A DNA stretch of 64,000 bases, taken from NCBI GenBank assembly GCA_964036665.1, contig OZ038529.1, positions 10,920,060-10,984,059 of the forward strand, read 5' to 3'. The stretch is from Gordius sp. MW1 (lineage: Eukaryota > Nematomorpha > Gordioida > Gordea > Gordiidae). The position numbers and the translations under genes are program-made. The notes below the pieces were generated by a model that did no database searches, was not told the origin of the DNA, and was given only the letters and a program-made list of their open reading frames with translations. This document shows, piece after piece, positions 39,011 to 47,215 of the stretch (position 1 is the first letter of the stretch; the number at the start of each line of letters is the position of its first letter).

Positions 39011-39109
39011 CACTATATCATACGTTGGTATATATATAAATATTATTCAAAAAATGATCTTCCATCAACGGTTACAACGTTGATACGTCCTCGAACAATA
39101 ATTCAATAT

Positions 39110-42075
39110 GGGATATAGGCTAAATCCCGAAAAGGCACAATCCCGAAGCTACAATAATGCTACTGCTACGATTTTCAAATTTCCATATGTTTTTTAATTT
39201 TAAAGTTTTATCCATAATCAAGAGCAAGATTTGGGTGCCCCTTTACAATTTACTTATGTAAGAATCACATTTAATTAACCTCTGCACCAAGTAACATAAT
39301 ATAGCTTTATTTACAGATCACTGATGAGTATTAATATTTAGTGACAAGGTATAAATTAAAGGATGCCATTAATAATAATCGTTTGGAATCAATATCTAAG
39401 GTAATTTTAACGTATTTAAAATCAGGGAATCATTAATCCTATTAGGTATACAATAATGTTTGGGTATTATGTACTCAAGAGCTATATTTGGGTGGAACCT
39501 TTACAATTTACTTATGTAATAATCACATTTATATTGTTAAATTTATACAATTTAGTACACTAATCTCTTCAAATATTAATTATAAATTTATGCAATAAAC
39601 CATTTAGTACACCCTTTACAATTTACTTATGTAATAATCTCATTTAAGTTGTTTAATTTATACAATTTAGTACACTAATGTCTTCAAATATTAATTATAA
39701 ATTTATGCAATAAACCATTTAGTACACTATATCTACAAACAATGCAGTCTTAATAGAGTTTATTGATTTACATATTAATATAATTACAAATGGAATCTAA
39801 AAATTCAAAACAATCTATTTCATCTCTTTTATAATGTAATTGTAAACACCTAATTCTTTGGGCTTTAGCTTCCAGCTTTCTTTGAACTTGATATAAAATA
39901 TTGCCATTGTTTATTTGTATAATTTTTGTTTCCATATTCCTTTGGTGTTCTTTTAAAGTTTGGATAAAACTATAAATATTTGGATGTGGCTGCTTTACTA
40001 ATTTCTTCATGGCATTATGAAATCCTTCCAGATGGTTATTAGTACTCATACCAGGAGCTTCATACTTTTGCCATAAATTATATGGAAATTTTGCATTATC
40101 ATCCACCCAAACATTTTTAACGTATCTCAAAAATCTTTTCAAATTGACATTATTGAGATTTTTTGAGGAAGTCATACATTTGTTATAAACTATATCAACA
40201 TCTGTTTTCCTGAGATATGGTGTATTGCATATTTCCTTGATAACTGTTCTGATTGTTTTGTCTTCAATGTATAGTTTAGCAAGGCCCAATTTCTTAGCTT
40301 TGCCAATTACAGCCTGGGAGAAGTGGAAGTAGCAACCTAGTAAGAATTTATTTTACTACATAATGTATAAATTTTACCTTGAATTATAATGTCAGGGAAT
40401 ATGATTTTTAGGGCTTTAATGGAAGCCATCTCAAAATCCACTTGCCAAAACATAGGATTAAATGTAAGTCCTATAGAACTGCACACTTGTCTAAGGCTTG
40501 TAAGAAATTTTACGTATGTCTTTGAAAATTTATTGGGGAGAATACCATAAATTGTTGGTATCATGTGGTTCTTATAAACAACATGAATAGTGTACACCTA
40601 AAATGTGTGAATATAAAGTTTAGTTTATGTACTTGATAAAAAAGGTCAGGGGTTATATAGAAGGTTCCATCTGAATAAACTTTGTTGGCATCACACATAA
40701 TCTTCAAAAATTTAGGTGTTCCAAATATAAACAAGCTATTGTCCAAATTTTCTAATAAAAAGGGAGTTCCATTCTTCAGATAGTGGCAGTCTAGGGGCAA
40801 TATTATCTCTTCAATAGTTCTTGGAATTTTGGGTCTATTTTTATGCAATGTTCTCTTCATTGTTCGTTTCATTGACTTAAAAGATGGTAGAGCATGTGGA
40901 TATTGCCATATATCTTCCACTTCTTCACGTCTTTGGTAAAGTACATCATTGTATACCTAATTGGATTAATGATTCCCTGATTTTAAATATGTTAAAATTA
41001 CCTTTGATATTGATTCCAAAGGATTATTATTAATGGCCTCCTTTAATTTATACTTTGTCACTAAATATTGAATCTCATCAGTTTCAGGTTCATGGTTATG
41101 ATTGTTTTTTAATTTAGCTATATTTTTACAATATATTAATCTGCAAGGACATTTTGAATTTCTGCATCTATAGTAAGTTGTAATTTTTGTAGTTTTGTCA
41201 ACGACATATAGATAATCATTGAGCCTCAAGATTGTTTTTCCTTTTTGGGATGGGATAAATTGTATATCTAAAATATTTGGGGGTTATACTAATTAAAACT
41301 AAACAAATCTACTTTGTGAATTTTCAGCTAGCGCAGGGGTTGGTTCATCATCACCCTGTTTAGGGGTCTCCTCATTAGCATCTAGTAACAATTCTCAGTA
41401 ATAAAATTTCAACTTCTTAAGAATAATTTATAAAATGTTTTTACTTTGTTGATCCCTTATAATTGTAGAGATGTTTTTAACAAGTGTGGTATTTGTTCCA
41501 TTTAGTTTTTCATTTGATGCTAAATTTTATAAATAAAGCTATATTATGTTACTTGGTGCAGGGATTGGTTGATCATTACCCTGTGTAGGGGTCTTATCAT
41601 TAGGTTCTAGTAAGCAATTATCAGTAATAACTCGACTTAGTTTTTCATTTGATGCTAAAATTTTATAAGTAAAGCTGTATTATGTTACCTTGAATACAAT
41701 TTTCAGAATGCTCAGTTGTGACTTTGAAATTACTATTCTTCAGTATACCCTTTCCTGGGCAATGACATATAGTACATTTCCTGCACTTGTAATACACCTG
41801 TCCAAGTTTTCCATCTTTAATTTTGGTATAATCCAAGTCTTTATGGGTCAGAATCAAATTTTTTCTACTCGACTTTTTAAATTCTAAAGATAATTTATAA
41901 ATATTTAGATATTAAGCTTACTTATACTTTCTGTATTATCTTGATTTGTTCTCTCAACCAAATATTCATTAAAAGCTTGATTATATGATTGCATATTTTT
42001 TACCATATGTTAATTGCCGTAAAAGTGTAGCATTAAAATTCGGGATTGTGCGCTTTCGGGATTTAGCCTAGGAAC
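39110..42075 (-). mobile_element. MULE (Mutator-like) element, left arm of inverted pair
   Basis: The outer end begins GGGATATAGGCTAAATCCCG. The inner end, on the other strand, begins GTTCCTAGGCTAAATCCCG. Both ends share TAGGCTAAATCCCGAAA and a following CACAATCCCGAA, so the element has terminal inverted repeats. It carries one transposase gene read toward the left, plus about 650 bp of non-coding sequence on the outer side with internal duplications. No convincing 8-10 bp target duplication is seen around either arm alone. Confidence 0.85.
39768..42006 (-). CDS. MULE transposase with FLYWCH-type fingers, intact (left copy)
   Basis: Exact mirror image of the gene at 42172-44410; coordinates of paired positions always sum to 84178, with no indel. 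Nine exons, 638 codons, start at 42006 and stop at 39768. The same catalytic residues and zinc-finger motifs are present. Its start codon is only 165 bp from that of the right copy, so the two genes are divergently arranged around the palindrome centre. See the right copy for the domain description. If only one copy is real, an assembly or cloning inversion would be the explanation. Confidence 0.88.
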
Positions 42076-42171
42076 ATTCAATATATGGGAATTAAAAAAT
42101 TGGTTCCTAGGCTAAATCCCGAAAGCGCACAATCCCGAATTTTAATGCTACACTTTTACGGCAATTAACAT
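42007..42171. promoter_or_regulatory. Shared head-to-head promoter region of the MULE pair
   Basis: 165 bp between the two divergent start codons, made of the two inner terminal repeats and the 27 bp unique centre (42076-42102). By symmetry each half must contain the promoter of its own gene. No TATA or initiator is assigned with confidence. Confidence 0.4.
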
Positions 42172-44410
42172 ATGGTAAAAAATATGCAATCATATAATCA
42201 AGCTTTTAATGAATATTTGGTTGAGAGAACAAATCAAGATAATACAGAAAGTATAAGTAAGCTTAATATCTAAATATTTATAAATTATCTTTAGAATTTA
42301 AAAAGTCGAGTAGAAAAAATTTGATTCTGACCCATAAAGACTTGGATTATACCAAAATTAAAGATGGAAAACTTGGACAGGTGTATTACAAGTGCAGGAA
42401 ATGTACTATATGTCATTGCCCAGGAAAGGGTATACTGAAGAATAGTAATTTCAAAGTCACAACTGAGCATTCTGAAAATTGTATTCAAGGTAACATAATA
42501 CAGCTTTACTTATAAAATTTTAGCATCAAATGAAAAACTAAGTCGAGTTATTACTGATAATTGCTTACTAGAACCTAATGATAAGACCCCTACACAGGGT
42601 AATGATCAACCAATCCCTGCACCAAGTAACATAATATAGCTTTATTTATAAAATTTAGCATCAAATGAAAAACTAAATGGAACAAATACCACACTTGTTA
42701 AAAACATCTCTACAATTATAAGGGATCAACAAAGTAAAAACATTTTATAAATTATTCTTAAGAAGTTGAAATTTTATTACTGAGAATTGTTACTAGATGC
42801 TAATGAGGAGACCCCTAAACAGGGTGATGATGAACCAACCCCTGCGCTAGCTGAAAATTCACAAAGTAGATTTGTTTAGTTTTAATTAGTATAACCCCCA
42901 AATATTTTAGATATACAATTTATCCCATCCCAAAAAGGAAAAACAATCTTGAGGCTCAATGATTATCTATATGTCGTTGACAAAACTACAAAAATTACAA
43001 CTTACTATAGATGCAGAAATTCAAAATGTCCTTGCAGATTAATATATTGTAAAAATATAGCTAAATTAAAAAACAATCATAACCATGAACCTGAAACTGA
43101 TGAGATTCAATATTTAGTGACAAAGTATAAATTAAAGGAGGCCATTAATAATAATCCTTTGGAATCAATATCAAAGGTAATTTTAACATATTTAAAATCA
43201 GGGAATCATTAATCCAATTAGGTATACAATGATGTACTTTACCAAAGACGTGAAGAAGTGGAAGATATATGGCAATATCCACATGCTCTACCATCTTTTA
43301 AGTCAATGAAACGAACAATGAAGAGAACATTGCATAAAAATAGACCCAAAATTCCAAGAACTATTGAAGAGATAATATTGCCCCTAGACTGCCACTATCT
43401 GAAGAATGGAACTCCCTTTTTATTAGAAAATTTGGACAATAGCTTGTTTATATTTGGAACACCTAAATTTTTGAAGATTATGTGTGATGCCAACAAAGTT
43501 TATTCAGATGGAACCTTCTATATAACCCCTGACCTTTTTTATCAAGTACATAAACTAAACTTTATATTCACACATTTTAGGTGTACACTATTCATGTTGT
43601 TTATAAGAACCACATGATACCAACAATTTATGGTATTCTCCCCAATAAATTTTCAAAGACATACGTAAAATTTCTTACAAGCCTTAGACAAGTGTGCAGT
43701 TCTATAGGACTTACATTTAATCCTATGTTTTGGCAAGTGGATTTTGAGATGGCTTCCATTAAAGCCCTAAAAATCATATTCCCTGACATTATAATTCAAG
43801 GTAAAATTTATACATTATGTAGTAAAATAAATTCTTACTAGGTTGCTACTTCCACTTCTCCCAGGCTGTAATTGGCAAAGCTAAGAAATTGGGCCTTGCT
43901 AAACTATACATTGAAGACAAAACAATCAGAACAGTTATCAAGGAAATATGCAATACACCATATCTCAGGAAAACAGATGTTGATATAGTTTATAACAAAT
44001 GTATGACTTCCTCAAAAAATCTCAATAATGTCAATTTGAAAAGATTTTTGAGATACGTTAAAAATGTTTGGGTGGATGATAATGCAAAATTTCCATATAA
44101 TTTATGGCAAAAGTATGAAGCTCCTGGTATGAGTACTAATAACCATCTGGAAGGATTTCATAATGCCATGAAGAAATTAGTAAAGCAGCCACATCCAAAT
44201 ATTTATAGTTTTATCCAAACTTTAAAAGAACACCAAAGGAATATGGAAACAAAAATTATACAAATAAACAATGGCAATATTTTATATCAAGTTCAAAGAA
44301 AGCTGGAAGCTAAAGCCCAAAGAATTAGGTGTTTACAATTACATTATAAAAGAGATGAAATAGATTGTTTTGAATTTTTAGATTCCATTTGTAATTATAT
44401 TAATATGTAA
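42172..44410 (+). CDS. MULE transposase with FLYWCH-type fingers, intact (right copy)
   Basis: Cut-and-paste DDE transposase of the Mutator superfamily. Exons: 42172-42256, 42295-42489, 42524-42625, 42659-42733, 42785-42865, 42911-43176, 43222-43545, 43581-43800, 43842-44410. They total 1,917 nt, giving 638 aa plus stop without any frame break. Introns are 33-51 bp, all GT-AG. Two Cys/His zinc modules: about residues 38-92 (KCRKCTICHC ... EHSENC) and about 193-236 (FLYWCH-like: YYRCRNSKCPCRLIY ... NHNHEP). The MULE catalytic domain follows: D364 in SDGTFY, D430 in QVDFEMA, the GCYFHFSQAV motif, and E553 in NNHLEGFHNAM. Exons 3 and 4 begin with the same words (ASNEKL/TSNEKL) after near-identical introns, an internal tandem duplication. 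AATAAA lies 3 bp past the stop. Open frame, intact triad and intact ends suggest it is or was recently active. Confidence 0.92.
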
Positions 44411-44719
44411 ATCAATAAACTCTATTAAGACTGCATTGTTTGTAGATATAGTGTACTAAATGGTTTATTGCATAAATTTATAATTAATATTTGAAGACAT
44501 TAGTGTACTAAATTGTATAAATTAAACAACTTAAATGAGATTATTACATAAGTAAATTGTAAAGGGTGTACTAAATGGTTTATTGCATAAATTTATAATT
44601 AATATTTGAAGAGATTAGTGTACTAAATTGTATAAATTTAACAATATAAATGTGATTATTACATAAGTAAATTGTAAAGGTTCCACCCAAATATAGCTCT
44701 TGAGTACATAATACCCAAA

Positions 44720-44925
44720 CATTATTGTATACCTAATAGGATTAATGATTCCCTGATTTTAAATACGTTAAAATTACCTTAGATATTGATTCCAAACGAT
44801 TATTATTAATGGCATCCTTTAATTTATACCTTGTCACTAAATATTAATACTCATCAGTGATCTGTAAATAAAGCTATATTATGTTACTTGGTGCAGAGGT
44901 TAATTAAATGTGATTCTTACATAAG
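44720..44925 (-). repeat. Inverted duplicate of transposase exon/intron sequence inside the MULE
   Basis: The reverse complement of 43095-43232 (exon 6 end, intron, start of exon 7), followed by the reverse complement of about 42615-42660, is present downstream of the stop codon with a few substitutions. The mirror copy is at 39253-39458. Confidence 0.8.
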
Positions 44926-45068
44926 TAAATTGTAAAGGGGCACCCAAATCTTGCTCTTGATTATGGATAAAACTTTAAAATTAAAAAACATATGGAAATT
45001 TGAAAATCGTAGCAGTAGCATTATTGTAGCTTCGGGATTGTGCCTTTTCGGGATTTAGCCTATATCCC

Positions 45069-45339: not shown

Positions 45340-47215
45340 TATAATGTTTTATTTATTAAAATCGAGTGTAAAAGAGTCCAATTAAAAATATTTCGATAAG
45401 GTTACACCATATGACGACTACGTTTAATTTGTTAATTTCCATTGACTTTAAAAACGCTTTCAACAGCGTCCATAGGGCGGCGTTTCTAAAACCCTTCCAG
45501 GAAGCGTACCCCGAATACTACTCCTATGTCCTCAATAGTTACGGTGCCCCATCATACCTTCTATTTGGGGACAAAACAATTCACTCTTCCAGAGGGATAC
45601 AGCAAGGTGATCCCCTAGGCCCAGCTCTTTTCTGTCTAGCCATCCAAGGGATAATTGAAAAAATTTCTAACTCAGGAAATTTTTCATGCAACCTTTGGTA
45701 CATGGACGACGGTTTTTTGGTGGGACCAGCCAGCGAAATACAAAAAATTATGAAAATCATCGAGTCCTTCTCAGATTTAGTAGGTCTCCAACTGAACCAT
45801 TTAAAATGTAAAATTTACTGCAGGGACACCTCAATCGACCCCTCATCACTCCCATTTCCCGTACTCTCCTTAGACCAGTTCAGCTATTTAGGCGCTCCAT
45901 TAGGAGGGCCCATCTCTTCGCAACGTTTTCTAGCAAAATTTTCGACCTTTATTGAGACCGTCAAACCCACCTTGCAAAAACTTACCCCTCACCACGCTTT
46001 CTTTTTGGCAAAAAATTTCCTGCTAATCCCAAAAATAAATCACGCCTTGCGTGCATCACCTATCTACAGCTGTCCCGAACAACTCAATATGATCAAACGG
46101 GGGCATTCAATCACTTTTTGAGTCCTGTCTCAATATAAAATTTAGTCCCGCCCAATGGCTCCAAGCATCCCTCCCTTCTAAGAGAGGGGGGATTGGCATA
46201 AGATCCCCGAGACAGATTGCATTAGCGGGTTTTATATCGTCGCGTATGAGTACCGACCCGCTAATCACCGCTTTGACATCTCTCTCAGACCCGCACCTTC
46301 AGGAGGCTCTACGCCTCTGGGATACGGAAAAGCTCGAATCAGCCGACCGACCACTTGGAGTGACCCAGAAGGAATGGCACCTTCCCTTGATAGCACGTTC
46401 CCTAGCTTACCTCTCTCCGAACGACCTATCTCAAGGAGAACACCTTTTCAACTGGGCTTCTTCCAACAGCGGTTACGAATGGCTCGAGGCAATCCCTAGC
46501 AGGAACCTGGGACTTCACATGTCTGGCGAGGAGCTACGCATTGCCATAGGCCTGCGTCTCGGCTGTGACATTGTTTCCCCATTCGTATGCGACCAATGTA
46601 AACAGCCTGTCCAACCCAATGGCCATCACCCCCTCCACTGCAAATACAGCAAAGGGCGCAACCCCAGGCACACGGCGATTAACAAACTAATCGGCCAGTA
46701 CCTAAGGAAGGCAGGCTTTCCAAATACCTTGGAACCCGTCGGCCTCAGCACACTAGATGGAAAAAGACCCGACGGCGTTACGCTCATCCCCTGGTCCCGC
46801 GGACTGAATCTCACTTGGGACTTCACCACGGTCGACATATTCGCCCCCTCCAACTCCTCTCCTGACCTTTTAGTCAGCACTGAAAGTAGGAAGTCAAATA
46901 AATACTCTTCCCTTTCAGAAACAATATTTATTCCCTTAGTGGCTTCCACAATCGGAAACCTAGGCATCCAATGCCTCTCTTTTTTAAAACAAATTGGGAG
47001 AGCAATTTCTATGGTCTCATCGGATTCGAAAGAGTCGTATTACATCAGACAGAAGATTACAATGGAAATCGTTAGATCTAACACGATTTCCATTCACTGC
47101 TCGATGCCATCCGTTAAGTCTTCGCGCGTTTATACCTTTCTTATTATACTTTTTAGTCGTTAATGTAAATTTGTATACAATTAAAGCTAAAATAAAGTAT
47201 TTTATGAATATATAT
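45340..47215 (+). pseudogene. Non-LTR retroelement fragment: RT palm + Cys/His finger + restriction-like endonuclease
   Basis: ORF 45411-46121 starts within the RT core: ISIDFKNAFNSVHR, RGIQQGDPLGPALFC and WYMDDGF (catalytic YMDD), LGAPLGGPIS. A frameshift near 46090-46120 leads into ORF 46246-47163 (the same frame is open upstream, QASLPSKRGGIGIRSP): CDQCKQPVQPNGHHPLHC zinc motif, KRPDGVTLIPW and LTWDFTTVDIFA, consistent with the PD-(D/E)XK endonuclease of R2/CRE-type elements. The 5' part of RT is missing. An AAAATAAAG tail is seen near 47190. The C-terminal domain order fits non-LTR elements with a restriction-like rather than APE endonuclease. Confidence 0.8.

What the first reader, a model, noticed from the sequence alone, without database searches (positions are those of the whole stretch)
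39110..45068. Perfect head-to-head inverted pair of intact MULE transposons
Seen: 2,966 bp arms around a 27 bp unique centre (42076-42102). All ORFs mirror at the same axis (paired coordinates sum to 84178), with no indel and no mismatch in any stretch I compared. Each arm has its own terminal repeats and an open 638-codon transposase. Inference: a very recent event such as an inverted local transposition, a fold-back composite transposon, or an assembly inversion. As a pair, the outermost ends could move as one 5.96 kb unit, and read-through transcripts would form near-perfect dsRNA of ~3 kb, an obvious trigger for silencing of the whole family.
Basis: partly seen in the sequence, partly recalled or inferred. 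Interest (0 to 1): 0.88.

Follow-up and report, generated by a model that had tools for sequence, protein, structure and literature searches.

The report
Mirror-image twin of a jumping gene
Two identical copies of a recently active animal jumping gene sit back to back in one short stretch of DNA, apparently because each landed there separately, and most copies of this element that still carry the jumping enzyme come in such mirror-image pairs while its enzyme-less relatives do not.

Summary
The pair is real. Arms 39110-42075 and 42103-45068 match with 0 mismatches in 2,966 bp, and identity stops at the element ends. Each arm is one 2,967-bp MULE (left copy lacks its last base). The 638-codon transposase is open only after removing eight short predicted introns.

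It is not a fold-back unit or assembly flip. Paralogous sites without the elements are colinear with both flanks. The left copy has a 9-bp target duplication; the right copy sits 17 bp further on, with no duplication and apparently 5 bp lost.

A transposase probe hits the genome 12 times at 7 loci; 10 of 12 lie in five inverted pairs. Of 84 other loci with an exact element end and no probe hit, none is paired (27 read in full; Fisher p about 5e-7), though they look equally young. Inverted close pairs also occur among other MULE-domain hits and in piggyBac.

Best reading: repeated re-insertion of a transposon beside or into its own copy, as in "double P" and "double Ds". Why only coding copies pair is unexplained. 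The silencing claim is weak: both genes read outward from the centre.

The parts
39110..42075 (-). left MULE copy (GGG end outside, GGTT end inside, final C missing)
42102..45068 (+). right MULE copy, complete 2,967 bp
39101..39109 (.). target-site duplication ATTCAATAT, left side of left copy
42076..42084 (.). target-site duplication ATTCAATAT, right side of left copy
42085..42101 (.). 17 bp of target DNA between the copies (two closest paralogous sites: ATGAGAATTAAAAAATT followed by AAACG, which is absent here)
42172..44410 (+). transposase gene of right copy, 638 codons after predicted splicing
   Evidence: FLYWCH at aa 183-238, MULE at aa 363-457
39768..42006 (-). transposase gene of left copy (mirror)
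42257..42294 (+). predicted intron 1 (38 nt)
42490..42523 (+). predicted intron 2 (34 nt)
42626..42658 (+). predicted intron 3 (33 nt)
42734..42784 (+). predicted intron 4 (51 nt; a 63-nt alternative also keeps the frame)
42866..42910 (+). predicted intron 5 (45 nt)
43177..43221 (+). predicted intron 6 (45 nt)
43546..43580 (+). predicted intron 7 (35 nt)
43801..43841 (+). predicted intron 8 (41 nt)
39110..39129 (+). outer terminal repeat of left copy, GGGATATAGGCTAAATCCCG
45049..45068 (-). outer terminal repeat of right copy
42102..42121 (+). inner terminal repeat of right copy, GGTTCCTAGGCTAAATCCCG
42057..42075 (-). inner terminal repeat of left copy (19 bp, last base lost)

Best explanation
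Two copies of one recently active animal MULE (FLYWCH + MULE transposase, 8-9 bp target duplications) were inserted separately, in opposite orientation, about 20 bp apart in one target site. Shown: both flanks and the centre are colinear with sites lacking the elements; the left copy has its own duplication; the copies are identical; and four more loci hold the same arrangement or its nested form, one of them (C4) with a separate duplication for each arm. Inferred: the second copy came from the first, or from its sister-chromatid copy, by self-proximal ('local') transposition, and integration or later repair of the right copy lost the duplication and 5 bp. Also inferred: direct-orientation neighbours are rare because homologous recombination removes them. 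Not explained: why copies lacking the transposase gene, with the same ends and similar apparent age, are not found in pairs.
For: Three paralogous sites on C1 and C2 (92%, 92% and 82% over the left flank) are colinear with both flanks. In the C4 pair each arm has its own 8-bp duplication (AATACTAG, CTATAAAA) with 14 bp between them, and an 86% paralogous site on C2 runs straight through. In C8, C1 and C2 the second copy lies inside or at the end of the first; all 5 loci are inverted. A 68-bp transposase probe (up to 3 mismatches) gives 12 hits, all exact, 10 of them in these 5 loci. Seven full-length copies differ by 1 substitution in all. Of 27 transposase-less copies read, 19 show exact 8-9 bp duplications, so the family inserts normally. 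Inverted close pairs recur among other MULE-domain hits (14 of 15 intervals under 8 kb) and in piggyBac, one of them a copy inserted inverted into another copy at an internal TTAA.
Against: Simple local hopping should also pair the transposase-less copies; none of 84 loci shows it (57 of them not read in full). The right window copy has no target duplication, so a regular insertion is not shown for it. Copy B of the C2 pair carries an extra tandem unit also seen in the unpaired C8:8862456 copy, so it may not be the sister of its partner, although that unit could arise repeatedly. Near-complete identity prevents proving donor and recipient. 5 of 5 inverted is only p = 1/32 one-sided. Direct close neighbours do exist: 1 of 15 MULE intervals and 3 piggyBac intervals in one array on C1.
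Confidence: 0.68

Rival explanations
1. Insertion is attracted to resident copies (bound ends or their chromatin) by any free copy in the nucleus, not from the sister copy.
For: In 4 of 5 loci (C3, C4, C8, C1) the second copy lies within about 700 bp of the partner's GGTT end; the C2 partner may be a different variant.
Against: Possible targets and donors are mostly transposase-less copies (84 of 92 end clusters), yet none of the five pairs contains one.
Confidence: 0.13
2. Survivorship: transposase-coding copies are converted or lost unless an inverted partner provides a repair template or silences them, so pairs are what is left.
For: Would explain why only coding copies are paired; one unpaired full-length relative (C8:8862456) has an internal deletion.
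Against: Two unpaired copies keep an intact transposase sequence, and 20 of 28 listed piggyBac hits of one family are unpaired (116 of 671 candidates scored, so partners may be missed). Near-identity leaves little time for loss.
Confidence: 0.12
3. Fold-back composite transposon that moves as one 5.96 kb unit.
For: Outer ends are both GGG-type and correctly oriented; another MULE family here does have long mirror arms.
Against: The left copy has its own duplication, the outer flanks share none, the centre is target DNA; the five loci have different junctions and flanks.
Confidence: 0.04
4. Assembly or chimeric-read artefact.
For: Not tested with reads.
Against: Identity stops exactly at element ends; target duplication and colinear paralogous sites; five loci with different junctions.
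Confidence: 0.03

Closest known systems
Double P elements / local P transposition (Drosophila) and double Ds (maize); recalled, apart from passages on self-insertions in PMC4744444
   Same: a second copy of a cut-and-paste element lands in or beside the first, often inverted
   Different: here a MULE; five loci in one genome; coding copies only
Phantom-type MULEs, e.g. Tm1 (PMC3169594, passages)
   Same: FLYWCH plus MULE domains; 9 bp target duplications (8-9 bp here)
   Different: short terminal repeats here, not Tm1's composite fold-back repeats; eight short predicted introns
Muta1, Aedes MULE (PMC5225508, passages)
   Same: animal MULE with 8 or 9 bp duplications; imprecise excision sites occur
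   Different: no inverted pairs in the passages seen
Mu killer, maize (PMC3440606, passages)
   Same: inverted duplication of a MULE transposase gene
   Different: Mu killer is described with both ends derived from the mudrA side and partial inverted genes; here the gene starts are in the centre and genes are complete. The C2 pair (genes convergent) is nearer to it.
Sleeping Beauty / piggyBac autointegration (PMC3952818, passages)
   Same: an excised transposon attacks its own sequence
   Different: autointegration is intramolecular; here two copies are present

Membership tests
Mutator-like element (Phantom-type) | MULE transposase domain | tested here: met
   PF10551 35.1 bits (cut-off 27.6) on the spliced protein; the unspliced piece alone stays below cut-off (23.3 bits)
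Mutator-like element (Phantom-type) | N-terminal FLYWCH zinc finger | tested here: met
   PF04500 42.2 bits (cut-off 23.6)
Mutator-like element (Phantom-type) | 8-9 bp target-site duplications | tested here: met
   19 of 27 short copies exact 8-9 bp; left window copy 9 bp; C4 arms 8 bp each; right window copy none
Mutator-like element (Phantom-type) | phylogenetic placement within Phantom | not tested
   no tree built; 7 homologues
Double-element (double P / double Ds type) | two copies of one element adjacent or nested, each with its own insertion signature | tested here: inconclusive
   met for C4, both arms; in the window only the left arm has a duplication
Double-element (double P / double Ds type) | second copy derives from the first by local transposition | not testable with these tools
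   copies identical
Fold-back composite transposon | one target duplication flanking the outermost ends | tested here: not met
   outer flanks ATTCAATAT versus TAGTCGGCA
Mu killer-like silencing locus | promoter ends outermost so that own transcripts form a hairpin (model recalled and from passages of PMC3440606) | tested here: not met
   transposase 5' ends in the centre
Mu killer-like silencing locus | small RNAs from the locus | not testable with these tools
   no RNA data

The most novel reading that the evidence does not exclude
In this genome, cut-and-paste elements of unrelated superfamilies re-insert preferentially beside or into their own copy in inverted orientation, and for this MULE only copies that encode transposase do so. 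That would imply a cis-coupled step: the element that makes the enzyme is the one that lands on itself. A side lead is the C2 locus, where copy B is a circular permutation (positions 10-2967, 4-bp ATAC, positions 1-9), as if an excised circle with joined ends had been re-integrated.
Probability: 0.25. Interest if true: 0.78.

Novelty: new variant of a known kind. Interest (0 to 1): 0.56.

Why it matters
Inverted twins of whole, near-identical transposons are substrates for chromosome breakage and dsRNA silencing in known systems (recalled). A genome in which five of seven transposase-carrying loci of one family are twins, while none of its 84 other detected loci is seen to be, gives a natural test of what decides where an element re-inserts, and whether a eukaryotic transposase can act in cis.

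Tried and rejected
Ectopic recombination or inversion as the cause of the right arm's missing duplication was rejected: the paralogous sites are colinear. Age as the reason why short copies do not pair was rejected: 23 short copies carry 13 substitutions in all, 16 of them none; the 4 other read copies (L029, L030, L040, L047) were left out of that count because of their length. A broken transposase was rejected once the introns were placed. MULE-only pairing was rejected by the piggyBac search. Literature: eight searches listed no paper whose title or abstract start reports this pattern in MULEs; the lists were capped and the library holds only open-licence papers. Passages of eight papers were read, none of them whole; those of PMC13359780, PMC3903597 and PMC8277862 had nothing on inverted pairs of one element. 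Organism: a window LINE-like ORF is closest to Gordionus (nematomorph) proteins at 51-62%; one search gave nothing useful, so the host is not settled. Rfam: 0 matches at gathering score in the window.

Full report
Observation. The mirror arms 39110-42075 and 42103-45068 are 2,966 bp each with 0 mismatches, and identity stops at 39109/45069. The element is 2,967 bp, with ends GGGATATAGGCTAAATCCCG and GGTTCCTAGGCTAAATCCCG. The left copy lacks the last base at its inner end, the right copy is complete. A chimeric read that folded back would be expected to carry the mirror into the flank; here it ends at the element.

Transposase. Raw frames are broken. Six introns were placed by me, two were found by enumerating GT-AG pairs; one alternative (63 nt) gives 4 codons fewer. 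Pfam finds FLYWCH (aa 183-238) and MULE (aa 363-457), both above cut-off. D364, D430 and E553 sit in motifs that I recall as the MULE DDE triad (positions). The protein search gave 7 homologues, the named ones from Rotaria, Gordionus and Microplitis, 26-40% identical.

How the pair arose. Three paralogous stretches without the elements were found and read: C1:19240782 and C2:6876304, each 92% over the left flank, and C2:17030119, 82%, where only 136 bp of the right flank align. The two close ones read ...AATTCAATAT|ATGAGAATTAAAAAATTAAACG|TAGTCGGCA.... The window reads ...AATTCAATAT, left copy, ATTCAATAT ATGGGAATTAAAAAATT, right copy, TAGTCGGCA.... So the left copy made a 9-bp duplication, the right copy sits 17 bp beyond it, and 5 bp (AAACG), judged from the paralogues, were lost without a duplication. 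Both flanks are in place: no inversion, translocation or composite jump is needed.

Other loci. An internal 68-bp transposase probe (up to 3 mismatches) gives 12 hits, all exact, at 7 loci. Ten of the 12 are in five inverted arrangements; the two others are C2:5065499 (one substitution, 9-bp duplication GTTTTTTAC) and C3:10608919 (GGG lost). C4: two complete copies, 30 bp apart, each with its own 8-bp duplication; a paralogous site on C2 (86%) is colinear. C8: first copy cut at position 2264, second copy complete and inverted at that point, first copy's tail and 108 bp of flank missing by comparison with two nearby paralogues. C1: second copy inverted inside the first, with a tandem duplication and deletions, outer duplication TTTTAAAA. 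C2: GGG ends face each other; copy A lacks its first 42 bp; copy B reads 10-2967 (with an extra tandem unit), ATAC, 1-9, then the duplication, which looks like a re-integrated circle (inference; a deleted third copy is an alternative). Orientation is inverted in 5 of 5; the transposase genes diverge in 4 of 5 and converge in C2. Only C3 and C4 have two (nearly) full copies.

Identity. Six full-length copies compared with the left window copy show 1 substitution in all. The pieces in C1, C2 and C8 are 100% over the long stretches; short pieces show 99.5-99.7%: 575 bp with 2 mismatches and 1 gap in C2 (and in C8:8862456), 301 bp with 1 mismatch in C1.

Relatives without the transposase. Exact-end searches give 93 GGG and 83 GGTT ends, in 92 clusters, of which 84 are not full-length loci. 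Of the 84, 70 have exactly one of each end, 13 a single exact end, and one (C1:16213443) an additional GGTT end 163 bp from the first, in the same orientation. No cluster shows two elements, and the nearest clusters are 11 kb apart. Fisher test 5 of 7 versus 0 of 84: p = 4.5e-7; counting the internally deleted C8:8862456 as full-length, 5 of 8: p = 1.1e-6. Ends with any mismatch were not counted, so a diverged partner could be missed. That the 84 lack the transposase rests on the missing probe hit and on the 27 read in full. Of these 27, 19 have exact 8-9 bp duplications and 8 do not. Twenty-three of them carry 13 substitutions in all, so they look as young as the full-length copies; against those they show 4 shared differences in the first 414 bp.

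Beyond this family. 128 MULE-domain hits (150 of 202 candidates scored): of 15 neighbour intervals under 8 kb, 14 are inverted and 1 direct; of 11 intervals from 8 to 30 kb, 4 are inverted and 7 direct. Neighbours were taken whatever their family, and several are not independent (the C4:7533622-7546073 group is a duplicated pair). Two were read: L056 has mirror arms of at least 4.4 kb at 99.6% with a repeat-rich centre and L059 arms of about 4.3 kb at 99.7%; their ends were not reached, so fold-back elements are possible there. A piggyBac search gave 122 hits (116 of 671 candidates scored). It has 17 neighbour intervals under 8 kb: 8 inverted, 9 direct. Six of the direct ones join pieces of one reading frame, the other three lie in one tandem array on C1. 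In one family of 28 hits, by my count from score and frame length, 8 hits form four inverted pairs and 20 are unpaired. L057 is one copy inserted inverted into another at an internal TTAA, and L058 is two copies inverted 91 bp apart. C3:956887 has the same spacing as L057 and may be the same event copied.

Mechanism. Two separate insertions are shown for C4 and, for the left copy, in the window. Local self-proximal transposition is inferred, by analogy to double P and double Ds (recalled) and self-insertions (PMC4744444, passages). Direct neighbours may be lost by recombination. The absence of pairs among transposase-less copies is not explained by age or ends, and is the reason for the interest.

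Silencing. In the window pair the gene starts face each other in the centre and the genes run outward, so own transcripts do not fold into the mirror. Mu killer is described with both ends derived from the mudrA side (PMC3440606, passages). The C2 pair and the two piggyBac pairs read are convergent and would be better candidates.

Limits.

Noticed in passing
L017 1021-3575 and about 70 two-ended loci: An abundant 2,555-bp transposase-less derivative (43 of 77 end-paired elements have exactly this length) keeps 414 bp and 273 bp of the MULE ends around about 1.87 kb of unrelated filler without an ORF of 50 aa; shorter versions (1665, 1871, 2139 bp) recur.
   Followed up: partly
L012 5450-8620 (C2:1986950-1990120): Copy B is a circular permutation of the element with a 4-bp ATAC joint between its two ends, suggestive of a re-integrated excision circle.
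   Followed up: partly
L056, L059: Other MULE-domain loci with mirror arms of more than 4 kb at 99.6-99.7% and repeats, possibly fold-back elements.
   Followed up: partly
G000:C1:7008645-7096915: A tandem array of piggyBac-transposase hits, all on one strand.
   Followed up: no
window 45411-47163: LINE-like ORFs (one with a reverse-transcriptase domain) beside the pair; the second ORF is closest to Gordionus proteins (51-62%), a hint that the host may be a nematomorph or relative.
   Followed up: partly
L018, L019: Two short copies have flanks that look inverted to each other rather than directly repeated.
   Followed up: no
window 42172-44410: Predicted introns of only 33-51 nt in the transposase gene.
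   Followed up: partly
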